Source: Phytomonospora endophytica (GTDB lineage: Bacteria; Actinomycetota; Actinomycetes; Mycobacteriales; Micromonosporaceae). Taken from it: a stretch of DNA of 64,000 bases. The stretch's first letter is position 1, and each line of letters begins with the position of its first letter. Positions 50,734-64,000 of this stretch are shown piece after piece. Under the pieces are notes generated by a model, which ran no database searches, had not been told where the DNA came from, and saw nothing but the letters and a program-made list of their open reading frames with translations. The position numbers and the translations under genes are program-made. The stretch is taken from assembly GCF_014202425.1 (NCBI RefSeq), contig NZ_JACHGT010000002.1, positions 62,001 to 126,000 on the forward strand. Direction: 5' to 3'.

Positions 50734-52149
50734 TCAGCGCCAAGCTTCGACAAGCTCGTCGGGCCCATAGGCCGCATGCAGACCGGCACTGGTGACGCCG
50801 CTGCGAGAAACCGCGACAAGCGGAAGCGGCTCGACACCGTACGCGACACGATGGCGTTGGAGCGCCACGAGATCATGGTTGTCGAACGGGGAGTTCTCCA
50901 GCCATTTGATCGATCCGAGGAAATGGACCTGCTTCGCGATCGGTGCCCGGTCCGCACCGACCAGGTCGATCTCGACGTCGTTTCCCCGGGTCCAGTAGGC
51001 TCCGACCACCGCGGACGCGGGCAGACCGTCGATGGGCTGCAACCGGGCCAAGCTCTCTCGGATAAGGGGTTCGACGGCTCGACCACGCCATGACGTCCAT
51101 CCGACGCGGATCCTCCGCAACGCCAGGTCCCCACGCATCCGCTCGATCTCAGCCATGTGGGGTTCCAGGAACGTCAGCCAGAACCGCAGGTACGGGTCGA
51201 CGATCCGGTACCGCCGCTCCTTCGAGGGACGGGTGGACAGTGGCAGTTCACCGATGACGATCCGCTTCCCGATCAACAGGTCCGTCGCACGGGTGAGGGT
51301 GGAATGTGCGATACCGCCGGCCGCCCGGGCGATGTTGGTGAACGTCCTCTCACCCGACCCGATCGCCCGCAACACCTCCCCGGCCATGGCCTGCGGCGGG
51401 AACTCCGCCGCGAGCGACCGCTCCGCCGAGACCAGCAACGCCGACGTCGGGTTGTCGAGAGCGGTTCCGAGAAATTCCCATACCGACGTCCCCGGCAGCC
51501 AGTCGCGCGCGACCAACGGCAGTCCGCCCGTGATCAGGGCGGCATCGAACGCCGTGGCGGCGTCAAGATCGAGCATCTCGGCCAGATCAGCGGGCCCCAG
51601 GGGTCCGAGAACCATTTCGGTGCCCCGCTGGTGGAACGGACGGCGATATTCGTTGAGCGCCTCCATCATCGACAGGTCGGATCCGACCAGCAACAGCAGA
51701 ACGGGCTTGCGCCGAAGATGCCGGTCCCACAGCCGTTGAAGCTGTCCCTCAAAGGCGTCGACACTGTCCATGAGATACGGAACCTCATCGATGACGACTA
51801 CGGAAGGACGGTCGTCGGGCAGGATGTCGGCGAGGAGCCGAAGCGCCGCGTTCCACTGACCGGGCGCCTCGTCGATGAACAGACCACGTTCCGGGAGGCC
51901 GGACTGCGCGACCGCGTCGCACAGTTCGGCAAGCTCCGCGTCAGCCGATCCCCCGGCCGCCGTGAAGTACACCGAAGGCGCCCCACTGACGCGGAGAAAC
52001 TCCTCGACGAGGCTCGACTTACCCACCCGGCGTCTTCCTCGGATCAGCAGGCAACGCCCCGGCTCCGACGAGCCGATCCCGTCACTGACACGATCGAAGG
52101 CTTCCCGCAGAACCGCGAGTTCACGACGCCTGCCGATGAATGCTTGCAC
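50734..52149 (-). CDS. Archaeal-type AAA ATPase with DUF234 nuclease-like domain
   Basis: This 471-aa protein joins a P-loop ATPase (FIGRRRELAVL, then LLIRGRRRVGKSSLVEEF and VVVIDEVPYLMD) to a C-terminal DUF234 domain (about 340-471). DUF234 is nuclease-like: EIDLVG is present, but the expected Glu-x-Lys reads SIKW with Ser for Glu, so cutting activity may be lost. GTG at 52149 is only 7 nt after TAGTAT, suggesting a leaderless start. It diverges from the DISARM-like operon. Confidence 0.8.
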   Translation of the reverse strand: MQAFIGRRRELAVLREAFDRVSDGIGSSEPGRCLLIRGRRRVGKSSLVEEFLRVSGAPSVYFTAAGGSADAELAELCDAVAQSGLPERGLFIDEAPGQWNAALRLLADILPDDRPSVVVIDEVPYLMDSVDAFEGQLQRLWDRHLRRKPVLLLLVGSDLSMMEALNEYRRPFHQRGTEMVLGPLGPADLAEMLDLDAATAFDAALITGGLPLVARDWLPGTSVWEFLGTALDNPTSALLVSAERSLAAEFPPQAMAGEVLRAIGSGERTFTNIARAAGGIAHSTLTRATDLLIGKRIVIGELPLSTRPSKERRYRIVDPYLRFWLTFLEPHMAEIERMRGDLALRRIRVGWTSWRGRAVEPLIRESLARLQPIDGLPASAVVGAYWTRGNDVEIDLVGADRAPIAKQVHFLGSIKWLENSPFDNHDLVALQRHRVAYGVEPLPLVAVSRSGVTSAGLHAAYGPDELVEAWR

Positions 52150-52154
52150 CCAGC

Positions 52155-52178
52155 GATACTACCAGTTGCGATAGTATC
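52155..52178. promoter_or_regulatory. Inverted repeat in the divergent promoter
   Basis: GATACTA (52155-52161) and TAGTATC (52172-52178) form an inverted repeat with a 10-bp spacer; CGATAGTATCG inside it is also nearly palindromic. It covers the presumed -10 of the AAA/DUF234 gene and lies about 190 bp before the DISARM-like operon. It is a likely operator. Confidence 0.45.
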
Positions 52179-52369
52179 GGTGCCGATAGCATTGGGGCCT
52201 AGAACCGCGCCGGCTCCCGGTTGCAGGTTTGGCACCACCACCACACTGCGCCAGCCCGCGCCCGCCCGTGTGTACTAGATTCACACCTGCCCAGCCATCG
52301 TCCTGCCTGACAACGAATCCACATGCAGCATGATGGACAGGCATCACCGATTGTGGAGGCGGAGGGCGT

Positions 52370-55300
52370 ATGGCATCGGGTGATCTCGTCGGGGGACGCT
52401 ACCGCAGGCTCGAACTACGCGGTGGCGGAATGGGCACTGTGTACCGCGCCGCGGACGTGACGAAGTCCACGGGCGAAGCCGACTCGATCGTGGCGCTGAA
52501 AGTCGTCCTGCCCCTTCACGAACCCGTCGATGCCATCAAACGGCATGGAGCCGCCAAGGACCTGGAGCGCTTCCAGCGCGAGATCCGGATCATGCAACGA
52601 CTCGACGCCCCAGGTCTGCCCCGCGTTCTGGACTCCGGCCACGATGAAGCCAGCGGTCAACCCTACCTGATCATGGAGTACATCGACGGACTGACCCTGA
52701 ATGATCTGGTGGGCGACGCACTCCCGGTCGGACCCGTCGCAGCCATCGGCGCGCAGCTCGCCGACGCCCTCGCGGTCGCGCACCGAGCGGACATCCTTCA
52801 CCGCGACCTCAAGCGCAGCAACGTCATGCTCCTGCCGAACGGCCGGGTCAAGCTCATCGACTTCGGAGTAGGCCTGCCACTGGACCTTCCCGGCATCACC
52901 AGCAGCGGCACAGTGGTGGGCTCGAAGAACTACATGGCTCCCGAACAGCTGTCCGGCGGGAATCTGGATGGCCGAACAGACCTGTACGGCCTTGGTTGCC
53001 TCCTCTACGAACTTCTGTGCGAGCCCTCCGCCTCACCGTTCACCGCTCGTCGGGCCGAGCAGCTGGCTGTCGGGATCGACGTGCCGATCCCGGCACTCAC
53101 GGATCTGCGTGGAGACGTCCCTCCCCGTCTCGCCATCCTTGTGGCCGCCCTCCTCGATCCCGCTTTGGCCGGACGTCCCGAAACCGCCGAGGCGGTGGCC
53201 GAGGCCCTGTGGGAAGTCGTCAGGACCACTGCGGCCACGGCTCTGCCCGCGCGCTTCCGAACCGGCGACCCCGCCGCCTTCCTGCCCGACACGCCGACAG
53301 CGGACCACCCGTCGTACGCCGTCAACGACGAGGCCACCTCTGACGCCTCCTTCCTCAACGTCTTCGAGCAACGCACCAGACTCGTCGAGGAGTACGCGAA
53401 CTTCACGGGCGGCGGCGTGATCATCGATGACCCCCGCATCCAGAAGTACCTCGACAAAGGAGCCGAGGACCGCGAGCAGTGGCCCGACCCGTACGTGGCG
53501 CTCAATCCCGCTTTCGCCGCTGGTGGAACCGTCCCCGAACTGATTGCCGATGGCCTCCTACACGACGGCTGCGATGCGATCTTCCGCTTCGACAAGAAGT
53601 CGGGGGTAGACAAGCCGCTGGGTCTCTACCGCCACCAGCGCGAAGCCCTTGAGGTCGCCTCCCGCGAGGACCGGCCCTCCTACGTCCTCACCACCGGCAC
53701 CGGCTCCGGCAAGTCGCTGTCATACCTGTTGCCGATCGTCGACCGGGTCCTGAAGGGCAAGAAGGGTCCAGACGACAAGCGCATCCGCGCGATCCTCGTC
53801 TACCCGATGAACGCCCTTGTCAACAGTCAGATGGAGGAGCTGGAACGATTCCTCGGAGACGGCTTCGGCGAAGGCGCCGAACCGGTCACCTTCGCTCGCT
53901 ACACCGGTCAGGAGGGTCAAGAGAAGCGGACCGAGATCCGCGCGAATCCACCCGACATCCTGCTCACTAACTACGTGATGCTGGAACTGATGCTGACCCG
54001 CAGAGAGGACCGCAAGGTCATCGCGGCCGCGAAAGGACTGGAGTTCCTCGTATTCGACGAACTACACACCTACCGAGGCCGCCAGGGCGCAGATGTCGCG
54101 TGGCTGATCCGCCGCCTCAAGCAAGCCTGCGAGGCCCCCGACGTGCAGTGTGTGGGAACCTCGGCGACCATGTCCACCGGCGGAACCGGCCGGCAGGAAC
54201 GCAAGAAGGAGGTCGCAGGCGTCGCCGGCCTCATCTTCGGCCGCGAGATCCGCCCCGAGCACGTCATCGAGGAGACCCTCGTCCGTGTGACCGTTCCCGA
54301 CGCCGAACCGGTCACCGCACAGCATGTGCACGCCACCGTCCTCCCGCCGAAGTACGAGGATCTGCGTGCCCATCCACTCGCCGCCTGGATCGAGGACGAG
54401 TTCGGTCTGGCCCGCGCTTCGGACGGCACCTATGAACGGCGTCCGCCGATCACGGTCGAGGCCGCCGCGGAAGAACTCGCCAGCCAGACCGGCACCTCCG
54501 TCGAAGAGTGCGACGCCGCGATCCGCCGCCTCCTGCTCCATGGCGCCAAGACGCCCGGAAGGCCGCTGTTCGCTTTCAAGTTGCACCAGTTCCTGTCCAA
54601 AGGCGACCACGTCTACGCCACCCTCGACACCGAGAACCGCCGGTACTTCACCCGCGACTATCAAGTGGAACGGCCCGGTGGAGAGCAGGAGATCTACGTC
54701 CCGCTCTCGTTTTGCCGAACCTGCGGCCGCGATTACTACTCGGTCTGGCGCGATACCAGCGGCCCGGTACCCCGCTACACGGCCCGCTACCAGATCGAAG
54801 TGGCCGAAGACGACCACATCGCCGAGGGCTACCTGCACATCCGCTCCGATGAGGAGTGGCCGGCCGCAGACACCGACGAACTCCTGGAACGACTCCCCGA
54901 CTCCTGGATCGAATTCGCCGCCGGTGGGAAACCGGTGGTCAAGAAGGCACGGGTCGGCGACGTTCCCCGAGCCGTGGCGGTGACCCCGCAGGGCTTCGAG
55001 ATCGCCGACGGCGCCTCCGCCACCTGGATTCCGGGGCGCTTCCGCTTCTGCCTGTCCTGCGGGGTCGTCAACGAGCGCCGCCGATCCGGCGACTTCGCGG
55101 TTCTGGCAACGCTCAACCAGGAGGGGAGGTCGACCGCGACGTCGGTTCTGTCCGCGGCCATCCTGCGCGAGCTGCGGAACATGCCCAAGGCGGACCAGAA
55201 GTTGCTGTCCTTCGTGGACAACCGGCAGGACGCCTCGCTCCAAGCCGGGCACTTCAACGACCTCGTACGCCACGTCCTGCAACGCGCCGCGCTGCACCTC

Positions 55301-58300
55301 GCGCTCAAGGACCGACCCGCCGATGAGCCGTACCTCCGCAGCGAGGACGTGGCGACCGCGGTCGCCACCGCCATGGGGCTGAACCACGCCGACTACGCCG
55401 AGAACACCGGCGAGTACTCCAGCGCACGCCAGGAGACCACGGGGGTGTTCCGGCGACGACTGGACCTGCTCCTGCACGCCGACCTCGGCGGCGGTTGGCG
55501 CATCACCCTGCCGAACCTCGAACAGGTCGACCTGCTGCACGTCCACTACGCCGACCTAGACGAGCTCTGCGCCGACGAACCCCGCTGGGCCGGCGTGCAC
55601 CTGCTAGCCGACGCCACCGCAGCCAAGCGGGCCGAGATCGTCACCACCGTCCTCGACGCGATGCGCCGGGAACTGGCCATCGAAGTGGACTGCTTCCGGC
55701 AAGAGAGCTTCGAGCAACTCGCCGCCGCCACGAACCGCCGCCTGAGCGAGCGCTGGAGACTGACGCCTTCCGATCGTCCACAGCAGACCATCGTCTACCC
55801 GGGATCCGGCGGGGGCTTCGATGACCGCCTGCTGAAGTTCTTCTCTTCACGCGGCAAGGTCGGCGCCTACCTCCAGCGAACCCTCAACGAGAAAATCAAG
55901 CTGGAGGACCGCGACCTCATCATCGCGCAACTCCTGCGTCTGCTCGCCGAGGTGGGAATCCTGACCGAGACCGCGCCAGCGCCTCGGCGCTTCGTGCGGG
56001 GAGCGACCCGACAGGCGCACACACCCGACCGCAACGGCTACCGTCTCAACGCCGCCTGCCTGCGCTGGCGGCTCGGCCCGGGTCTGTACGGCATCCACGA
56101 CCGGCTCACCACGACCCGGCCCGACGACAGCCGCCCCGAAGTCAACCGCTTCTTCCTGAACCTGTACCGACGGCCGACCGACACCCTGAACCACCTGTGG
56201 GCGCGTGAGCACACCGCTCAGGTACCGGCGGATCTGCGAGAGAAGCGGGAGAAGGACTTCCGGTCCGCCGACCTGCCGGTGATGTACTGCTCCCCGACGA
56301 TGGAACTCGGCGTCGACATCGCGTACCTGAACGCCGTACTGATGAGAAACGTACCGCCGACCCCGGCCAATTACGCGCAGCGCTCGGGCCGAGCCGGGCG
56401 CCACGGGCAACCGGCGCTGATCGTCACCTACTGCGCGACGGGAAACTCCCACGACCAGTACTACTTCAAGAACCGGACGAAGATGGTCTCCGGCTCGGTC
56501 ACTCCACCCCGCCTCGACCTGTGCAACGAGGATCTGATCACCTCGCATATCCAATCGATCTGGCTCACCGAAGCAGACATCTCCCCGGGCAAGGACATCC
56601 CGTCGACAGTGGACACTTCTGCCTTCGACGACGAGGACTTCGCCCCCGACGCGAAGATGCCCCTCTTCGACGATCTGAAGGAGAAGAGCCGGCAACGGGC
56701 GCCCCTGGACAGGACCAGACGCAAGGCCTCAGAGCTTCTGGAGCCGCTGAGGTCCGCTCTCGTAGGGACGACCTGGTGGGACGAAGCCTGGCTGGACGGC
56801 GTCGTGAAGCGAATCCCCACAGACTTCGACCACGCCTTCGAACGCTGGCGAGGTCTGTACCGAGCGGCGAGCACCGACGTCCGTGAACAGTTCAACCGAA
56901 GTATCGGCTGGCAGCTACGCCAGCGGGAACGCGACGAGGCGGCCCGACGTGAGCGCGAGGCCCGCGCCCAGCTGAGGCTGCTACGCAACGGTGGCGGGGA
57001 CCGGAACACGATGAGCGCCGACTTCAACCCGTTCCGATACCTGGCCAGTGAGGGATTCCTGCCGGGATACTCCTTCCCCAGGCTCCCGCTCGCCGCGTTC
57101 ATCCCTGGCGGGGACCGGCGCGAGGGCGACTACATTCAGCGCTCGCGTTTCATCGCCATCACCGAGTTCGGTCCCAGCGCCCTCATCTATCACGAGGGCG
57201 AGCGTTTCGAGGTCCGCAGAGTGCAAACGGACAGCGACAGCAACGGGGAGCTCGTCCTGCGGAGAATGCGTCGCTGCGGGGTGTGCGGCTGCGCGCACCT
57301 GCCCGACGAACTGGCCGACCGCTGCGAAGTATGCCGCGCCGACCTGACCGAGTTGGACACCAATCTCCTGGAACTCAAGACCGTCTACACCGAGAAGCGC
57401 GACCGGATCACCTCCGACGAGGAGGAGCGGCACCGGGTCGGCTACGTCGTGGAGACCGCGTTCAAGTTCGTCGACCACGGCGAGCGCCCGGGCCGCGTGG
57501 AGGCGCGTGTACGGGACCGCGACGGCGGTGACGTGGCGACCTACATCTACGGTGACGCCGCCCTGGTGCGCCGGGTCAACCGGCGCCGGCGCACGCAGAA
57601 GGACGATGGCTACTTCATCGACCCGGTGACGGGCCGCTGGCTGGGCAAGGGCGCGGCTGATCGCGCGGTCGGCGACGCCAGCGAGGTCGACGACGAGGAC
57701 AAGACCACGGTCCGCAAGCGCGTGATCCCGTTCGTTGAGGACACCCACAACATCGCGCTGCTTCGCCTGGCCGAGCCGGTGGACCGCGAGACCGCGCTGT
57801 CGGTCATGTATGCCCTGGAACGCGGCATCGAAGCGGCGTACCAGCTGGAAGACGTGGAGTTGTCCGCCGAGCTGCCCAGCGGAGACGATCGCACCGAGTT
57901 CCTGCTGTTCGTGGAGTCCAGCGAGGGCGGCGCCGGTGTCTTGCGCCAGTTCGAGAACGACCCGCCGGCGCTGGCGCGCGCGGCCCGGGCCGCCTTGGAG
58001 ATCTGTCATTTCGATCCTGACGCGCAAGCCATGACCGACCGGAACCCCGACGGGTGCGCCAAGGCCTGCTACGACTGCCTGCTGTCCTACGGGAATCAGT
58101 TCCATCACCGGCTCATCGACCGGCACTCTGCCTACGAGCTGCTACGGCGGCTGGCGGAAGGCACTGCTCTGAGTTCCGGGAAGGGCGAGTCCCGCACCGG
58201 CCGACATCAGCGCCTGACGAATGCAGCGGAGTCGAGTCTCGAACGGCACTTCCTGGACGAGGTGAAGCGGCACGGTTTCCGGCTGCCCACCGAGGCGCAG

Positions 58301-58573
58301 GTGAGTCTGCCGGAACTGGGCTGCCGCCCCGATTTCGTGTACCGCCTCGACGGTGTCGATGTCGCGGTGTTCGTCGACGGTCCCCATCACGCCGGCGCGA
58401 GCCGAATCCACCGCGACACCGAGGCGGAGAACCGCCTCATCGACGTCGGCTGGGAGGTGATCCGTTTCAGTCACAAGGAAGTCGACGACTGGATCGGCGT
58501 CTTCCGCCGGCACCGCAACGTCTTCGGTCCCGGCTTGACCGACACGCCCGAACCCAGCGAAGGAACCCGATGA
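52370..58573 (+). CDS. Kinase-helicase-DUF1998-nuclease fusion of a DISARM-like operon
   Basis: This 2067-aa protein has an N-terminal Ser/Thr kinase (about 8-285) with Lys44, His-Arg-Asp (144-146), Asp-Phe-Gly (164-166) and Ala-Pro-Glu (190-192) intact. A superfamily 2 helicase (about 415-1400) has TTGTGSGKS (441-449), DELH (563-566), zinc-like Cys pairs (about 783 and 895) and QRSGRAGR (about 1340). A zinc ribbon follows at about 1636-1658, a DUF1998 four-Cys cluster at about 1880-1905, and a DUF559/Vsr-type nuclease at about 1960-2050 (CRPDFVYRLDGVDVAVFVDG). All catalytic residues of the kinase look functional. ATG at 52370; stop overlaps the next start. Confidence 0.85.
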   Translation: MASGDLVGGRYRRLELRGGGMGTVYRAADVTKSTGEADSIVALKVVLPLHEPVDAIKRHGAAKDLERFQREIRIMQRLDAPGLPRVLDSGHDEASGQPYLIMEYIDGLTLNDLVGDALPVGPVAAIGAQLADALAVAHRADILHRDLKRSNVMLLPNGRVKLIDFGVGLPLDLPGITSSGTVVGSKNYMAPEQLSGGNLDGRTDLYGLGCLLYELLCEPSASPFTARRAEQLAVGIDVPIPALTDLRGDVPPRLAILVAALLDPALAGRPETAEAVAEALWEVVRTTAATALPARFRTGDPAAFLPDTPTADHPSYAVNDEATSDASFLNVFEQRTRLVEEYANFTGGGVIIDDPRIQKYLDKGAEDREQWPDPYVALNPAFAAGGTVPELIADGLLHDGCDAIFRFDKKSGVDKPLGLYRHQREALEVASREDRPSYVLTTGTGSGKSLSYLLPIVDRVLKGKKGPDDKRIRAILVYPMNALVNSQMEELERFLGDGFGEGAEPVTFARYTGQEGQEKRTEIRANPPDILLTNYVMLELMLTRREDRKVIAAAKGLEFLVFDELHTYRGRQGADVAWLIRRLKQACEAPDVQCVGTSATMSTGGTGRQERKKEVAGVAGLIFGREIRPEHVIEETLVRVTVPDAEPVTAQHVHATVLPPKYEDLRAHPLAAWIEDEFGLARASDGTYERRPPITVEAAAEELASQTGTSVEECDAAIRRLLLHGAKTPGRPLFAFKLHQFLSKGDHVYATLDTENRRYFTRDYQVERPGGEQEIYVPLSFCRTCGRDYYSVWRDTSGPVPRYTARYQIEVAEDDHIAEGYLHIRSDEEWPAADTDELLERLPDSWIEFAAGGKPVVKKARVGDVPRAVAVTPQGFEIADGASATWIPGRFRFCLSCGVVNERRRSGDFAVLATLNQEGRSTATSVLSAAILRELRNMPKADQKLLSFVDNRQDASLQAGHFNDLVRHVLQRAALHLALKDRPADEPYLRSEDVATAVATAMGLNHADYAENTGEYSSARQETTGVFRRRLDLLLHADLGGGWRITLPNLEQVDLLHVHYADLDELCADEPRWAGVHLLADATAAKRAEIVTTVLDAMRRELAIEVDCFRQESFEQLAAATNRRLSERWRLTPSDRPQQTIVYPGSGGGFDDRLLKFFSSRGKVGAYLQRTLNEKIKLEDRDLIIAQLLRLLAEVGILTETAPAPRRFVRGATRQAHTPDRNGYRLNAACLRWRLGPGLYGIHDRLTTTRPDDSRPEVNRFFLNLYRRPTDTLNHLWAREHTAQVPADLREKREKDFRSADLPVMYCSPTMELGVDIAYLNAVLMRNVPPTPANYAQRSGRAGRHGQPALIVTYCATGNSHDQYYFKNRTKMVSGSVTPPRLDLCNEDLITSHIQSIWLTEADISPGKDIPSTVDTSAFDDEDFAPDAKMPLFDDLKEKSRQRAPLDRTRRKASELLEPLRSALVGTTWWDEAWLDGVVKRIPTDFDHAFERWRGLYRAASTDVREQFNRSIGWQLRQRERDEAARREREARAQLRLLRNGGGDRNTMSADFNPFRYLASEGFLPGYSFPRLPLAAFIPGGDRREGDYIQRSRFIAITEFGPSALIYHEGERFEVRRVQTDSDSNGELVLRRMRRCGVCGCAHLPDELADRCEVCRADLTELDTNLLELKTVYTEKRDRITSDEEERHRVGYVVETAFKFVDHGERPGRVEARVRDRDGGDVATYIYGDAALVRRVNRRRRTQKDDGYFIDPVTGRWLGKGAADRAVGDASEVDDEDKTTVRKRVIPFVEDTHNIALLRLAEPVDRETALSVMYALERGIEAAYQLEDVELSAELPSGDDRTEFLLFVESSEGGAGVLRQFENDPPALARAARAALEICHFDPDAQAMTDRNPDGCAKACYDCLLSYGNQFHHRLIDRHSAYELLRRLAEGTALSSGKGESRTGRHQRLTNAAESSLERHFLDEVKRHGFRLPTEAQVSLPELGCRPDFVYRLDGVDVAVFVDGPHHAGASRIHRDTEAENRLIDVGWEVIRFSHKEVDDWIGVFRRHRNVFGPGLTDTPEPSEGTR

Positions 58574-61452
58574 CCGTGTACACCCCGGGCACCTTGGTCA
58601 CCACCCGCGCCCGCGACTGGGTGGTCCTCCCCGAGTCGACATCCGAGATGCTGGTCCTGCGGCCCCTCGGCGGTTCCGACGACGACATCGCTGCGGTCTT
58701 CCCGGACCTGGAGCCGGGCGGGGTCGCCGAAGCGACCTTCGCGCCGCCCACGCCCGGCGACCTGGGCGACGCGGCCTCGGCGGGTCTGCTGCGCACGGCG
58801 ATGCGAGTGGGTTTCCGTTCTTCCGCGGGACCGTTCCGCGCCCTGGCAGGCCTTGCGGTGGACCCACGCGCCTATCAGCTCGTTCCACTGCTGATGGCCC
58901 TGAGGCAGGAAACGGCCCGGCTGCTCATCGCAGATGACGTCGGTGTCGGCAAGACCGTGGAGGCCGGACTCATCGCCACCGAGCTCCTGGCCTCAGGAGA
59001 GGCCTCCGGTCTGGCCGTCCTGTGCTCGCCGGCGCTGGCCGAACAGTGGCAGGACGAACTGCGGCAGAAGTTCAACATCGACACCGAGTTGGTCCTCGCC
59101 TCGACGGTGAACCGGTTGCGGAGGACCCTCGACCTCGGGCAGACCATCTTCCAGAAGTACCGGCACGTCGTGGTCTCCACCGATCTGATCAAGAACCCCA
59201 AATACCGTGCGGAGTTCCTGAAGAACTGCCCGGACCTGGTGATCGTGGACGAGGCGCACGGCTGCGTGGCCTCCGACGACGACAAATCCACCCAACGCAA
59301 CCAGCTGCGCTACGAACTCCTCCAGCAGGTCGCCGCCGACACCGGCCGGCACCTCCTGCTGCTGACCGCCACCCCGCACAGCGGGAAGTCGGCCGCGTTC
59401 CGCAACCTCCTCGGCCTCCTCCACCCTCGCCTGTCGAATGTGGACATCGACACGGATGCGGGCCGACGGCTCCTGGCGGAGTACTTCGTGCAGCGCAAAC
59501 GCGCCGACATCCGCCACTACCTTGACGAGGACACCGAGTTCCCAGCCGACAGGCTCTTCAAGGACGAAACCTACAAGCTCACCCCCGGCTACCGTGCCCT
59601 CCTGGACGCCGCCATCGACCACGCGCGCGGCAAGGTCACCGGCGCCAGGGGACGCGCCGACCGGCGCTCCGAGCGCATCGCCTGGTGGTCGGCGATCGCG
59701 CTGCTGCGGTCCCTGGTGTCCTCACCGAGGGCCGCTGAACTGACCCTGCGCACCCGCTCGGCGGCGGCGATGGCCGAGACCGCCGAGGAAGCCGACCTCC
59801 TCGGCCGTCCGATCACTTTGGACAGCGTCGACGACGATCGCCTGGAGGGCATCGACCTCGCACCTGGAGCCGACTACGACGAGGCCGCCGCCGAGGTCCT
59901 GAAGCAGCTCGCCGACCAGGCCGCCGCGCTCGAAGGCCCAGACGCCGACGCCAAGCTCGCCGCCCTCATCAAGCACGTGAAGCGGCTGCTCGCCGAGGGC
60001 TACAGCCCCATCGTGTTCTGCCACTACATTCCCACCGCCGAGTACGTCGCGGAGCACCTGCGCGAGGCACTGCCCGGCAAGGTCCTGGTCGAGGCCGTCA
60101 CCGGCACCCTGTCGCCGCAGCAGCGGCTCCAGCGCATCGCCGACCTGGCCACCGCGAGCATGGAGAACCCCTCCGCGCGCAAAGTACTCGTCGCGACCGA
60201 CTGCCTGTCGGAGGGCGTGAACCTCCAGCACCATTTCGACGCCGTCGTCCACTACGACCTCGCATGGAACCCGACCCGCCACGACCAGCGCGAAGGCCGC
60301 GTCGACCGCTTCGGGCAGACGCGGGACCAGGTTAAGGTCGTGACGGTCTACGGAGCCGACAACGGCATCGACGGCAAGGTCCTCGACGTCCTGATCACCA
60401 AACACCGCAGGATCCGCAAGGAACTCGGCATCAGTGTCTCGGTGCCCGACGAGGCCTCAGCCGGCGTCACCGACGCCATCGTGGAATGGCTGGTGCTGAC
60501 CGACCGCGACGACCGCGCCGACCAGCCTGGCCTCTTCGAACTCGCCGACGTCGAGCAGACCCTCGACAAGGAGTGGCAGTCGGCCGCCGACCGCGAGAAG
60601 CGCACTCGCGCACGGTACGCGCAGAACGCGATCAAGCCCGATGAGGTGAAGACCGAGATCGACACCGTCCGCGATGTCCTCGGCGCCGCCGCCGACGTGG
60701 ACCTGTTCACCCGCCGGGCGCTGCGCGCCTACGGCGGGCTCATCACCGATACCCCCGAAGGCTTCACCGCCGACGTCACCACCACCCCCGTCGGGCTGCG
60801 CGACACCCTCGGCACCGCCCTCGGCGGCGACACCATCGACAAGGGCAAGCCGGTGGTGTTCCGCGTCAACCCGGCTGTCCCGCGCGGGGAGGCGGCCCTG
60901 GTTCGGACGGATCCGGCGATCTCCGCGCTCGCCGCTTACACACTCGATACCGCATTGGACAAAGACCTGCCGAGCAACGAACGCCCGGCCCGGCGTACCG
61001 GCGTGATGCGAACCGACGCGGTGAGCGTCCGTACGACTCTGCTGTTGGCGCGGTTCCGCTTCCAGCTCGTCCTGCCGTCCCGGCACGGCGTCCGCGACCT
61101 TGTGGCGGAGGACGTGCGACTGCTGGCCTTCACCGGCTCGCCGGACAGGGCTGTGTGGCTCGATCACGGCGATACTCTGAAACTCCTCAACGCCGAACCG
61201 AAGGCCAATGTGGACCGGAGTTTCGCGGAGAACTCAGTCGCACGCATCCTGGACACCCGCGACGCCCTCGACGAGCACCTCGCCGAGACTGCCGACCGGC
61301 TCGCCGAAGAGCTGTACAGCGCGCACCGGCGGGTGCGCGAGGTCGGCGGTGCGGGCCAGCGGAGGCTCGGCGGCCTGCGAGTGACGCCCCAGGGCACGGC
61401 CGACCTGCTCGGTGTGTACGTATACCTGCCCGTCTCGCCCGGAGGCGCCTGA
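58570..61452 (+). CDS. drmD: DrmD-like SNF2 helicase (DISARM class 1)
   Basis: In DISARM, DrmD is a SNF2-family translocase. This 960-aa protein has a Walker A LIADDVGVGKTVEAG (about 119-133), DEAH (227-230), SAT-equivalent LTATPHSGKS, and the C-terminal helicase motif GVNLQHHFDAVVHYDL then QREGRVDRFGQ. The N terminus MTVYTPGTLV and the LRPLGGSDDD run are those I associate with DrmD. ATG at 58570 overlaps the fusion gene stop; a methylase follows. Identification is by memory of the family, not a search. Confidence 0.85.
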   Translation: MTVYTPGTLVTTRARDWVVLPESTSEMLVLRPLGGSDDDIAAVFPDLEPGGVAEATFAPPTPGDLGDAASAGLLRTAMRVGFRSSAGPFRALAGLAVDPRAYQLVPLLMALRQETARLLIADDVGVGKTVEAGLIATELLASGEASGLAVLCSPALAEQWQDELRQKFNIDTELVLASTVNRLRRTLDLGQTIFQKYRHVVVSTDLIKNPKYRAEFLKNCPDLVIVDEAHGCVASDDDKSTQRNQLRYELLQQVAADTGRHLLLLTATPHSGKSAAFRNLLGLLHPRLSNVDIDTDAGRRLLAEYFVQRKRADIRHYLDEDTEFPADRLFKDETYKLTPGYRALLDAAIDHARGKVTGARGRADRRSERIAWWSAIALLRSLVSSPRAAELTLRTRSAAAMAETAEEADLLGRPITLDSVDDDRLEGIDLAPGADYDEAAAEVLKQLADQAAALEGPDADAKLAALIKHVKRLLAEGYSPIVFCHYIPTAEYVAEHLREALPGKVLVEAVTGTLSPQQRLQRIADLATASMENPSARKVLVATDCLSEGVNLQHHFDAVVHYDLAWNPTRHDQREGRVDRFGQTRDQVKVVTVYGADNGIDGKVLDVLITKHRRIRKELGISVSVPDEASAGVTDAIVEWLVLTDRDDRADQPGLFELADVEQTLDKEWQSAADREKRTRARYAQNAIKPDEVKTEIDTVRDVLGAAADVDLFTRRALRAYGGLITDTPEGFTADVTTTPVGLRDTLGTALGGDTIDKGKPVVFRVNPAVPRGEAALVRTDPAISALAAYTLDTALDKDLPSNERPARRTGVMRTDAVSVRTTLLLARFRFQLVLPSRHGVRDLVAEDVRLLAFTGSPDRAVWLDHGDTLKLLNAEPKANVDRSFAENSVARILDTRDALDEHLAETADRLAEELYSAHRRVREVGGAGQRRLGGLRVTPQGTADLLGVYVYLPVSPGGA

Positions 61453-64000
61453 TGGCCACTGTCTCGACACAGTTCACCTCGCTCACGACCGTTGGAGGGC
61501 TGCTGCCCGCGGACTTCCTACTGCGGGTCGCTGAGGGGCGCGGGCTGGCGCACACAGCGCCGGCGGACTACCGGGTGGTGGGGTCGCGCGGGGTGGACGA
61601 CGCGGCGGAGCGGCGCTGGTCGTACCTGCTGTCGGCCTGGCGCGAACTCCGTAAGGCGGGAATGAAGCTCCCCGCAGAGTTGAAGGAGGGCGAGGCACTT
61701 TCCGATCCTTCGGGCAGGGCTCGCGACGAGTGGCTACTGCCGCTGTTCGACGAGCTCGGGTACGGCGGACTGCCGACGGTGGCGGGCGGCGGGATCGCCG
61801 CCTCTGACGACGACGGGCGTACGAGTTTCCCGATCACCCACCAGTGGGGGCATGTGCCCATTCAATTGGTGAACTGGGCGACCGACATCGACGACCGATC
61901 GGCCTACGCGCTGACGCAGGAGTGCCTGAACAGGTCCGATGACAATCTGTGGGGCATCGTCTCCAATGGACGGACCCTGCGACTGCTGCGGGACAACTCG
62001 GCGCTGTCCGGACCGGCCTATGTGGAGTTCAACCTCGCGGACATCTTCGAGGGCGAACTGGTCGCGGACTTCGTGCTGCTGTACCGGCTGCTGCACGCGA
62101 CCCGGTTCCGGACTGAAGGGGATGCGCCGGCCTCGACGTGTGTTCTGGAGACCTGGCGCGGGGAGGCGATCCGCACGGGAGTGCGGGCCCTGGACCAGTT
62201 GCGGGACGGGGTCGAGACGGCGATCCAGACCCTGGGGACAGGGTTCCTCGCCCATCGTGCGAACAAGTTGGACCCAGACGACACCAGGCTCGACAAGGAC
62301 GAGTTCCACCACGCGGTGCTGAGGTTGACCTACCGACTGCTGTTCTGGTTCGTCGCGGAGGAGCGGGGGGTTCTGCACACCGAGGACACCGATTCCGCCG
62401 TGCTGGAACGGTACCGGGAGTACTTCTCCAGTGCCCGACTGCGGAGCCACGCCCGGAAACGGCGCGGGAGCAGGCACGTGGACCTGTTCCAGGGGGTGCG
62501 GTTCGTCCTCGACGGACTCGGTGATGAGGAAGGGCTGGAGACACTCGGGCTGCCGGGGCTCGGCGGGATCTTCGACCGGACCGAGGGCGACCGGCTGCTC
62601 ATCGGGAAAGAACTCTCCAACGAAGCGCTGCTGGCTGCCGTGCGATCCCTGGCGGCGGTGTACGACAAGGGTGCGCGGAGATGGCGGGCGATCGACTACC
62701 GGCACCTGGACGCCGAGGAACTGGGGTCGGTCTACGAGTCGCTGCTGGAGCGGGTGCCGCAGTTCGTGCCAGGTGAGCGGCGGTTTGTGCTGGAGACTCT
62801 GGCGGGGAACGAGCGGAAGACGACGGGGTCGTACTACACGCCGTCCTCGCTGATCGAAAAGCTTCTGGATACGACGCTCGACCCGGTGATCGACGCGGCG
62901 GAGAAGAAAGGCGGGGACGACCGGAAGGCGATCATCCGGGAGCTCCTGAGCCTGAAGGTCTGCGACCCGGCATGCGGGTCGGGGCATTTCCTAGTGGCGT
63001 CGGCGCGGCGGATCGCGAAGCGGGTGGCGTCGGTGAGGCATGAGACGCCGGAGCCGACGCTTGAGGAGACGCGGGAGGCACTGCGGGAGGTCATCGGGCG
63101 GTGCATCTACGGGGTCGACCTGAACCCGATGGCGGTGGAGCTGGCGAAGGTGGCGCTGTGGATGGAAGCCATGGTGCCGGGGATGCCGCTGGGGTTCCTG
63201 GACGCGCATGTGAAGCGAGGGAACGCACTGATCGGGGCTTACCCGAAGCTGATGAATGAGGGAATCCCGGACGATGCATGGACCGCGATCGAGGGGGATG
63301 ACAAGGCCGTCGCGCGGGAGCTGAAGAGAGACAACCGGAAGCAACGGGCATCGGGGCAGATCGGCCTCTTCGGAATCGGGGCTGCGAGCGCAGACGCTTC
63401 GAACACTGGAATCGCGGCCGAACTGCTGAAGATCACCCAGGCTCCGGCACGAGACCTCAGGGCGGTACACGCCCAAGAGGCCGACTATCGGATATGGAAA
63501 GCTTCGCAGGAAGTCGCCAAGAGGCGGCTCCTCGCAGACACATGGTGCGCAGCCTTCTTCTGGCCGAAGCAGGACGACGGGATGTATGCACCGACGGAAC
63601 AGCGGTACCGGGAACTTGCGGCGGACATTAAGTTGCCGATGGACACCGAGGCGGAGGTCCGTCGGCTCGCGGAGGAATACGCGTTCTTCCATTGGCATCT
63701 GGAGTTCCCGGAGGTGTTCGAGGTACCTGACCATGGGCTCGGGGCCGAAGAACAGACGGGGTGGACTGGGGGGTTCTCAGCGGTGGTGGGGAACCCGCCG
63801 TGGGAACGAATCAAGCTTCAGGAGCAGGAGTTCTTCTCCCAGCGGCACGCGGAGATCGCCGAGGCACCGAATGCGGCCGCCCGCAAGCGGATGATCGCAA
63901 CACTGTCCGAGACCAACTCAACGCTCTACCAGGAGTTCGAGAGAGCGAAGCGGGAAGCGTCGGGACAGTCGCACTTCACGAAGGCCTCGAAGCGATTCCC
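61452..64000 (+). CDS. drmMI: DrmMI-like adenine-specific DNA methylase (partial)
   Basis: Only 849 codons are in the window; the gene runs off the right edge. It has an Eco57I-type N6-adenine methylase core: SAM-binding DPACGSGHFL (Asp505 onward), GVDLNPMAVELAKVALW, and catalytic NPPW (Asn781 onward). The N-terminal about 400 residues are typical of type IIL/DISARM methylases. ATG at 61452 overlaps the drmD stop by one base. In DISARM this enzyme marks host DNA as self. Any target-recognition domain lies mainly beyond the window. Confidence 0.85.
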   Translation, partial: MATVSTQFTSLTTVGGLLPADFLLRVAEGRGLAHTAPADYRVVGSRGVDDAAERRWSYLLSAWRELRKAGMKLPAELKEGEALSDPSGRARDEWLLPLFDELGYGGLPTVAGGGIAASDDDGRTSFPITHQWGHVPIQLVNWATDIDDRSAYALTQECLNRSDDNLWGIVSNGRTLRLLRDNSALSGPAYVEFNLADIFEGELVADFVLLYRLLHATRFRTEGDAPASTCVLETWRGEAIRTGVRALDQLRDGVETAIQTLGTGFLAHRANKLDPDDTRLDKDEFHHAVLRLTYRLLFWFVAEERGVLHTEDTDSAVLERYREYFSSARLRSHARKRRGSRHVDLFQGVRFVLDGLGDEEGLETLGLPGLGGIFDRTEGDRLLIGKELSNEALLAAVRSLAAVYDKGARRWRAIDYRHLDAEELGSVYESLLERVPQFVPGERRFVLETLAGNERKTTGSYYTPSSLIEKLLDTTLDPVIDAAEKKGGDDRKAIIRELLSLKVCDPACGSGHFLVASARRIAKRVASVRHETPEPTLEETREALREVIGRCIYGVDLNPMAVELAKVALWMEAMVPGMPLGFLDAHVKRGNALIGAYPKLMNEGIPDDAWTAIEGDDKAVARELKRDNRKQRASGQIGLFGIGAASADASNTGIAAELLKITQAPARDLRAVHAQEADYRIWKASQEVAKRRLLADTWCAAFFWPKQDDGMYAPTEQRYRELAADIKLPMDTEAEVRRLAEEYAFFHWHLEFPEVFEVPDHGLGAEEQTGWTGGFSAVVGNPPWERIKLQEQEFFSQRHAEIAEAPNAAARKRMIATLSETNSTLYQEFERAKREASGQSHFTKASKRF

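What the first reader, a model, noticed from the sequence alone, without database searches (positions are those of the whole stretch)
52370..64000. DISARM-like operon headed by a kinase-helicase-DUF1998-nuclease fusion
A 2067-aa protein combines an intact Ser/Thr kinase, an SF2 helicase, a DUF1998 domain and a DUF559-type nuclease, then drmD-like and drmMI-like genes follow with 1-4 bp overlaps. Canonical DISARM has separate drmA (helicase) and drmB (DUF1998). Here a single protein with added kinase and nuclease heads the operon, as if phosphorylation controlled the complex.
Basis: partly seen in the sequence, partly recalled or inferred. Interest (0 to 1): 0.85.

Follow-up and report, generated by a model that had tools for sequence, protein, structure and literature searches.

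The report
Kinase-fused ARMADA phage defence operon
A three-gene bacterial anti-phage operon of the recently described ARMADA kind carries a complete, strictly conserved protein kinase welded onto its main helicase-nuclease, a fusion found in a whole branch of actinomycete systems, suggesting that phosphorylation controls this DNA-destroying machine.

Summary
One 2067-aa frame (52370-58573) joins an intact Hanks kinase, an SF2 helicase with its DUF1998/MZB domain, and a C-terminal Vsr-like nuclease. A Snf2/RapA-type helicase (58570-61452) and an Eco57I/PglX-type methyltransferase (61452-65408, ending outside the window) follow with 4-bp and 1-bp overlaps.

It is not DISARM. By gene order, content and profile similarity it is ARMADA Type I (Bell et al. 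2025, PMC12458937), where helicase and DUF1998 are normally one protein with a C-terminal Vsr nuclease. The same genome has a real split drmA-drmB pair elsewhere, almost unrelated to this protein.

What is unusual is the kinase. Among 87 compared relatives (window included), 46 carry it in frame. They form one clade with two exceptions: one clean loss and one frameshift at a 26-C tract. In all 46, seven catalytic positions are invariant although kinase identity falls to 37%. Trees of the other two genes split at the same place. The word 'kinase' does not occur in the main text of the ARMADA paper.

Best reading: a kinase-gated ARMADA Type I subtype, controlled rather like Pgl/BREX-2, whose kinase is essential for resistance. 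No substrate was identified and nothing was tested at the bench.

The parts
52370..58573 (+). Gene 1: kinase - YprA/ArmC-type SF2 helicase - MZB/DUF1998 - Vsr-like nuclease, 2067 aa
52382..53245 (+). N-terminal Hanks-type Ser/Thr kinase (aa 5-292); K44, E71, HRD D146, N151, DFG D164, APE E192
   Evidence: residues invariant in 46 of 46 kinase-bearing rows
53612..54229 (+). Helicase RecA1 (aa 415-620), Walker A K448, DELH 563-566
54191..55369 (+). Insert between RecA1 and RecA2 (aa 608-1000): helical part plus Cys-rich beta part; the place of the BrxA-like/ZBM inserts in ARMADA
   Evidence: model pLDDT 84; fold search inconclusive
56207..56407 (+). Helicase_C (RecA2) core (aa 1280-1346)
57806..58081 (+). 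MZB/DUF1998 zinc-binding domain (aa 1813-1904); C1896, C1900, C1903
58142..58570 (+). Vsr-like PD-(D/E)xK nuclease (aa 1925-2067); E1958, D1988, D2003, H2007
58570..61452 (+). Gene 2: Snf2/RapA-like (BrxHII/ArmA/DrmD-type) helicase, 960 aa
61452..64000 (+). Gene 3: Eco57I/PglX/DrmMI-type N6-adenine methyltransferase, 1318 aa; continues to window position 65408 (L004:3452-7408)

Best explanation
An ARMADA Type I anti-phage system in which the YprA-like helicase-nuclease acquired, apparently once in an actinomycete ancestor, an N-terminal Hanks kinase with a complete active site. Inferred mechanism: gene 3 methylates host DNA for self-recognition. Genes 1 and 2 form a helicase/translocase complex that loads on unmodified or replicating phage DNA, unwinds it and cuts it with the Vsr-like nuclease. 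The kinase gates this step: when several gene-1 proteins assemble on phage DNA, their tethered kinases come together, phosphorylate each other and/or genes 2 and 3, and switch the complex from idle to attack. Shown here: architecture, operon, family placement, clade distribution, catalytic conservation. Inferred: defence activity of this copy, kinase activity, the substrate, and the direction of control.
For: Placement: gene order helicase-BrxHII-PglX is the published general Type I order (PMC12458937). Among 80 named loci, gene 2 follows gene 1 in 39 of 40 kinase loci and 35 of 40 kinase-less loci, and gene 3 follows as well in 36 and 31; the misses lie at contig ends except L054. The family profile scores ArmC_II 311 bits, DruE_III 242, own DrmA 13. 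The alignment to ArmC runs through the nuclease (profile columns 429-2057); that to DruE stops at column 1956. Gene 2 resembles ArmA (149 bits) and gene 3 ArmB (89 and 69 bits). Kinase: 46 of 46 rows keep K44, E71, D146, N151, D164, G166, E192 at pairwise identity down to 37%. One clade with two exceptions on the helicase tree (3 changes against 29.2 in shuffles); one kinase clade (98*) apart from 25 rows of the genome's own kinases. Gene-2 and gene-3 trees split kinase systems from the rest on one branch (100*). Precedent: PglW kinase activity is essential in Pgl, where PglX is a methyltransferase (PMC4365076); DruE assembles into higher-order forms on long ssDNA (PMC13192584).
Against: No experiment. 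Most ARMADA-I-like relatives in the phylum sample lack the kinase (2 of 16 genomes with a match carry it, own genome included), so it is not needed for the core mechanism. One close relative (L048) has lost it. Ser/Thr columns specific to the kinase clade show no clear enrichment: 4 of 58 specific columns in gene 1 (at two of these the window itself has Gly), 4 of 40 in gene 2, 0 of 20 in gene 3. Nuclease residues E1958 (27 of 44 aligned) and H2007 (31 of 44) decay in part of the kinase clade, while kinase-less rows keep them in 38 of 40 and 33 of 36. The BrxA-like insert was not confirmed by fold search. The published Type I reference protein was not available, so membership rests on Type II proteins and published descriptions.
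Confidence: 0.6

Rival explanations
1. The kinase is an off-switch or maintenance control: it phosphorylates the complex constantly to hold the nuclease or methyltransferase silent, and infection (for example ATP loss or phage factors) releases it.
For: PglX is toxic without its antitoxin PglZ in Pgl, so such operons may need restraint (PMC4365076). Kinase strictly conserved.
Against: One relative, L048, keeps the operon without the kinase, and most relatives in the phylum sample manage without one.
Confidence: 0.17
2. The kinase is an abortive effector: on DNA sensing by the helicase it phosphorylates host proteins and stops the cell, like Stk2 in Staphylococcus.
For: Stk2 precedent (review passage, PMC12926258). 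In 13 of 44 aligned kinase rows the nuclease His is lost while the kinase is intact, as if the kinase were the more important output there.
Against: ARMADA Type II protects without cell death or metabolic shutdown (PMC12458937). The nuclease aspartates stay conserved, 44 of 44 aligned.
Confidence: 0.13
3. A DISARM operon with fused drmA-drmB.
For: Genes 2 and 3 are related to DrmD and DrmMI; ARMADA itself shares these two genes with DISARM.
Against: Family profile against the genome's own DrmA 13 bits and DrmB -4, against ArmC 311. No drmC-type PLD gene among the scanned neighbours. Vsr-like C-terminus.
Confidence: 0.03
4. The kinase is a passenger: an accidental fusion without function.
For: Most relatives in the phylum sample lack it; one loss.
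Against: Seven catalytic residues invariant in 46 of 46 rows; retained across six named actinomycete orders.
Confidence: 0.05

Closest known systems
ARMADA Type I (Bell et al. 2025, PMC12458937)
   Same: Order YprA-like helicase, BrxHII-like helicase, PglX-like methyltransferase; DUF1998 in the same protein; Vsr nuclease at the C-terminus; abundant in Actinomycetota.
   Different: N-terminal kinase, not mentioned in that paper's main text (0 occurrences of 'kinase'; its supplements could not be read).
ARMADA Type II (E. coli ATCC 8739, L108)
   Same: Homologous genes ArmC, ArmA, ArmB.
   Different: Another gene order and a fourth gene ArmD; no kinase hit.
Druantia III DruE
   Same: Same helicase branch, colinear up to about the end of the MZB domain.
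   Different: DruE carries PLD nucleases and has partner DruH (PMC13192584).
DISARM class I
   Same: Relatives of drmD and drmMI.
   Different: drmA and drmB are separate genes, plus drmC (PMC12458937); helicase only remotely similar.
Pgl / BREX type 2 (PglW, PglX)
   Same: A Hanks kinase and a PglX-type methyltransferase in one actinomycete defence system; kinase Lys essential (PMC4365076).
   Different: PglW is a NERD nuclease plus tandem kinases with wHTH and iSTAND domains (PMC12839542), not a YprA helicase; Pgl needs PglY and PglZ, for which no gene was recognised here.
Mokosh (MkoA)
   Same: From memory: kinase domain joined to a helicase in a defence protein. PADLOC's MkoA model hits our kinase part (106 bits).
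   Different: The match lies in the kinase only; from memory its helicase is of another family and its partner is a PLD protein.

Membership tests
ARMADA Type I | YprA-family helicase of the ARMADA/Druantia branch | tested here: met
   Profile: ArmC 311, DruE 242, own DrmA 13 bits; hhalign to ArmC E 7e-54
ARMADA Type I | Gene order helicase, BrxHII-like, PglX-like; no GajB-like fourth gene | tested here: met
   the ORF after gene 3 is a shadow of its end, then an XRE regulator
ARMADA Type I | C-terminal Vsr-type nuclease on the helicase | tested here: met
   (Vsr Z 8.4 and 8.1; I-Bth0305I Z 9.3); by sequence profile 1cw0 only at E 0.033; Foldseek nothing at E<=0.001
ARMADA Type I | BrxA-like insert after RecA1 and Zn-binding barrel in RecA2 | tested here: inconclusive
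   Insert present with conserved CxxC pairs; no convincing fold match
ARMADA Type I | Position in the published tree next to WP_108720193.1 | not testable with these tools
   no look-up of that protein by accession was at hand; not attempted by other means
ARMADA Type I | Protects against phage | not testable with these tools
   bench test needed; the published test was on Type II
DISARM class I | Separate drmA and drmB genes | tested here: not met
   One fused protein; a real drmA-drmB pair is elsewhere in the genome
DISARM class I | DrmA-type helicase | tested here: not met
   13 bits against own DrmA; no DrmA among the best 25 of 71 PADLOC families for gene 1
Druantia III | DruE with C-terminal PLD nucleases and a DruH partner | tested here: not met
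   Vsr-like end; alignment to DruE stops before the nuclease; neighbours are gene 2 and gene 3
Pgl/BREX type 2 | PglW, PglY/BrxC and PglZ | tested here: inconclusive
   None recognised among the ORFs scanned from about 10 kb upstream to about 28 kb downstream of the operon, but not every ORF was scanned and genes elsewhere in the genome were not sought
Active Hanks kinases | Complete catalytic motifs | tested here: met
Active Hanks kinases | Measured kinase activity | not testable with these tools
   needs purified protein

The most novel reading that the evidence does not exclude
A separate ARMADA subtype in which DNA-templated assembly of the helicase-nuclease brings tethered kinases together, so that trans-autophosphorylation is the infection sensor and licenses the nuclease and methyltransferase: a phospho-gated restriction complex, with control analogous to PglW but built independently, and in at least one lineage perhaps switchable at a poly-C tract between kinase and helicase.
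Probability: 0.3. Interest if true: 0.82.

Novelty: new variant of a known kind. Interest (0 to 1): 0.6.

Why it matters
How helicase-methyltransferase defence systems are kept quiet until phage DNA arrives is open; a 2026 review still lists ARMADA, DISARM, BREX and Druantia as restricting DNA by unknown mechanisms (PMC12904381, passage). A kinase in cis with the helicase-nuclease gives a single residue (K44) with which to test whether phosphorylation is the switch. The subtype occurs in 12 named actinomycete genera, including Streptomyces and Micromonospora, so it can be tested in ordinary laboratory strains. It would also be a second route, beside PglW, by which a kinase entered a DNA-attack system with a PglX-type methyltransferase.

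Tried and rejected
Fused DrmA+DrmB as the novelty: rejected, since fusion is the normal state in this helicase branch and the profile speaks against DISARM.

'PD-T4-6' as the kinase's family: rejected as a generic label; three of the genome's own kinases score higher on those models (best 276, 294 and 463 bits against 205).

A phospho-substrate by comparative conservation: no clear enrichment of Ser/Thr specific to the kinase clade (no statistical test was made); null result.

A separate kinase gene beside kinase-less relatives as the ancestral state: kinases near L064, L066 and L022 fall outside the fused clade, with low support around them; not supported.

L013 as an independent stand-alone kinase: rejected; its two halves are in different frames at a 26-C run, so phase variation or sequencing error. 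No other of the loci searched has a run of 9 or more equal bases inside gene 1.

A fourth operon gene (L004:7059-7859): shadow ORF of gene 3.

BrxA-like fold of the insert: Foldseek gave nothing at E<=0.001; VIA-align best Z 4.0. Profile search for it in solved structures: 0 matches. Profile-profile comparison of this insert alone with ArmC and DruE was also weak (probability 9 and 7).

Carriage on phages: 1 partial match in 50,697 phage records, starting at query residue 327, so without the kinase. tRNA genes: none in the window, L004 or L005.

Class-wide genome counts: the search failed twice; order and phylum samples were used.

Rows dropped or special: L014 (same record as L091) and L015-L017 (split or contig-edge pieces) left out of the 87. 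Among the 46, L082 has gene 1 in two frames and L043 ends with its contig. L013, L048 and L083 were left out of the kinase-less group; L082 is missing from the gene-1 profile; 18 and 25 rows too short were missing from the gene-2 and gene-3 trees. Among the own-genome kinases, L109 and L116 appear to be the same kinase taken twice.

Full report
WHAT IS THERE. The kinase part has coding-type base composition in the same frame as the rest and is closest among solved structures to PknB, StkP and PknA. Its catalytic motifs are complete. The C-terminal domain is below Pfam cut-offs but models well (pLDDT 88); the best structural matches are I-Bth0305I and Vsr (Z 9.3, 8.4, 8.1). Foldseek alone gave nothing at E<=0.001.

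THE OPERON. Gene 2 (58570-61452, 960 aa) overlaps gene 1 by 4 bp and gene 3 (61452-65408, 1318 aa) overlaps gene 2 by 1 bp. Gene 3 ends 1408 bases outside the window; its end was read from the window's own contig. The window is G000:C2:62001-126000. An apparent fourth ORF is a shadow of gene 3. Further on come an XRE/DUF5753 regulator, a methylase-specificity fusion and a pPIWI-RE set: a defence island. Upstream lies a divergent AAA ATPase gene.

WHICH FAMILY. Bell et al. (PMC12458937; [quoted passage not shown] Type II has the other order and adds a GajB-like gene. Their ARMADA helicases carry DUF1998 in the same protein and a C-terminal Vsr nuclease. I took the E. coli ATCC 8739 proteins used in that paper (L108) as references. 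A profile of 86 relatives of our helicase (45 with kinase, 41 without) scores ArmC 311 bits, DruE 242, and the window genome's own DrmA and DrmB 13 and -4. Profile-profile alignment to ArmC runs through the nuclease, that to DruE stops before it. Genes 2 and 3 match ArmA (149 bits) and ArmB (89 and 69 bits). So I file the locus as ARMADA Type I, not DISARM. The BrxA-like insert that Bell et al. describe could not be confirmed by fold or by comparing that region alone, and I had no Type I reference protein.

THE KINASE IS A CLADE TRAIT. Forty of these 80 carry the kinase; with the window and five relatives the set holds 46 kinase-bearing among 87 rows. The 80 are biased towards kinase carriers, because the query held the kinase. 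Less biased samples: in 101 near relatives 10 genomes have a match: 6 with kinase in frame, 2 full-length without (one of them L013, the frameshift), 1 split, 1 at a contig edge. In 150 genomes of the order 11 have a match: 4 with kinase, 6 without, 1 partial. In 198 of the phylum 16 have a match, 2 with kinase. Own genome is counted in each, and three carriers (G174, G167, G181) lie on contigs of the same length as L018, L052 and L039, so they are not new. On plasmids, 1 of the 40 listed records (71 matched) shows the kinase.

On a tree of helicase columns only, the 46 kinase rows and two kinase-less rows form one clade (100*), needing 3 changes against 29.2 in shuffles (FastTree, with a long-branch warning that includes the window). 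The two exceptions are L048, where the kinase is gone, and L013, where a 26-C run at the kinase-helicase junction puts the two halves in different frames. The kinase tree puts all 46 plus the L013 half in one clade (98*), apart from 25 rows of the genome's own kinases. Trees of gene 2 (38 against 31 rows, L048 counted with the kinase side) and gene 3 (36 against 26) split the two kinds on a single branch (100*). The three genes have thus travelled together since the fusion. L027, labelled Melainabacteria, is a 9.9-kb contig of a MAG and probably a mis-bin.

SELECTION. K44, E71, D146, N151, D164, G166 and E192 are identical in 46 of 46 kinases, whose pairwise identity falls to 37% (median 62%); the window's kinase is 40-48% identical to the others. 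Nuclease residues are looser: D1988 and D2003 in 44 of 44 aligned, E1958 in 27 of 44, H2007 in 31 of 44. The kinase active site is therefore more strictly kept than two of the four nuclease positions.

HOW IT MAY WORK. In Pgl of Streptomyces coelicolor, PglW's kinase lysine is needed for phage resistance and for autophosphorylation, and the authors propose that it signals to the methyltransferase PglX (PMC4365076, abstract and passages). DruE, a relative of our helicase, engages 3'-tailed DNA as dimers and assembles further on long ssDNA (PMC13192584, passages). Joining the two: kinases tethered to a helicase that multimerises on phage DNA would be activated by proximity. This is inference. 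A search for kinase-clade-specific Ser/Thr positions gave no clear enrichment (4 of 58 specific columns in gene 1, 4 of 40 in gene 2, 0 of 20 in gene 3), so no substrate is proposed; positions 397, 515, 624 and 634 of gene 2 are only candidates.

NOVELTY. In the library, three papers hold both 'YprA family helicases' and 'ARMADA' (the same three). In the other two, PMC13192584 has 0 occurrences of 'kinase' and PMC12904381 has 3, those shown being about phage-encoded kinases, in text and reference list. ARMADA with defense system, kinase, helicase and methyltransferase gave 1 paper, by its title on Bacillus biocontrol (listing only). YprA with 'kinase domain' and phage gave 0. Serine threonine kinase, helicase, phage defense, Streptomyces and DUF1998 (4 of 5) gave 2 reviews: one seen only in the listing, the other, PMC12926258, by passages on other terms. 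Protein kinase, fused, helicase, anti-phage, DISARM and Actinobacteria gave 2: PMC13316683, checked by passages, has one 'kinase' hit, in the reference list, the other was seen only in the listing. Kinases in defence are known (PglW; Stk2 in a review passage; Mokosh from memory). I therefore rate it a new variant of a known kind.

Noticed in passing
L144:3923-8996 (G000:C8): The same genome carries a genuine split drmA-drmB pair (PADLOC DrmA 637 bits, DrmB 220 bits), next to genes with UvrD/NERD-like and type IV restriction-like matches; the rest of that system was not worked out.
   Followed up: partly
window 58570-61452: PADLOC model PDLC02853, named DpdE, gives gene 2 1303 bits though no Dpd gene was recognised in the neighbouring ORFs scanned; the model probably holds ARMADA-type helicases, so automatic calls of Dpd may be wrong here.
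   Followed up: partly
L004:16741-19602 and L005:2-5494 (about window 74741-83494): pPIWI-RE set (PprPIWI, PprDinG, PprRE, PprPDDEXK) with N6-methylases on both sides, downstream of the ARMADA operon.
   Followed up: partly
L013:1519-1544: A run of 26 C at the kinase-helicase junction of one relative puts the two in different frames; reminiscent of the phase-variable G tract of pglX. Could be sequencing error.
   Followed up: partly
window 52154-52179: Perfect inverted repeat CGATACTA-N10-TAGTATCG between the divergent ATPase gene and gene 1; possible operator.
   Followed up: no
window 50734-52149 (-): Divergent AAA/DUF234 ATPase, weak match to the candidate defence family PDC-S27 (77 bits).
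   Followed up: no
L054:988-6345: Kinase-less helicase with 6 kb downstream but no detectable gene 2 or gene 3; exception to the operon rule.
   Followed up: no
L064:7797-8828, L066:7839-8921 (both -): A stand-alone Ser/Thr kinase divergently next to a kinase-less ARMADA helicase in two close Streptomyces; outside the fused kinase clade.
   Followed up: partly
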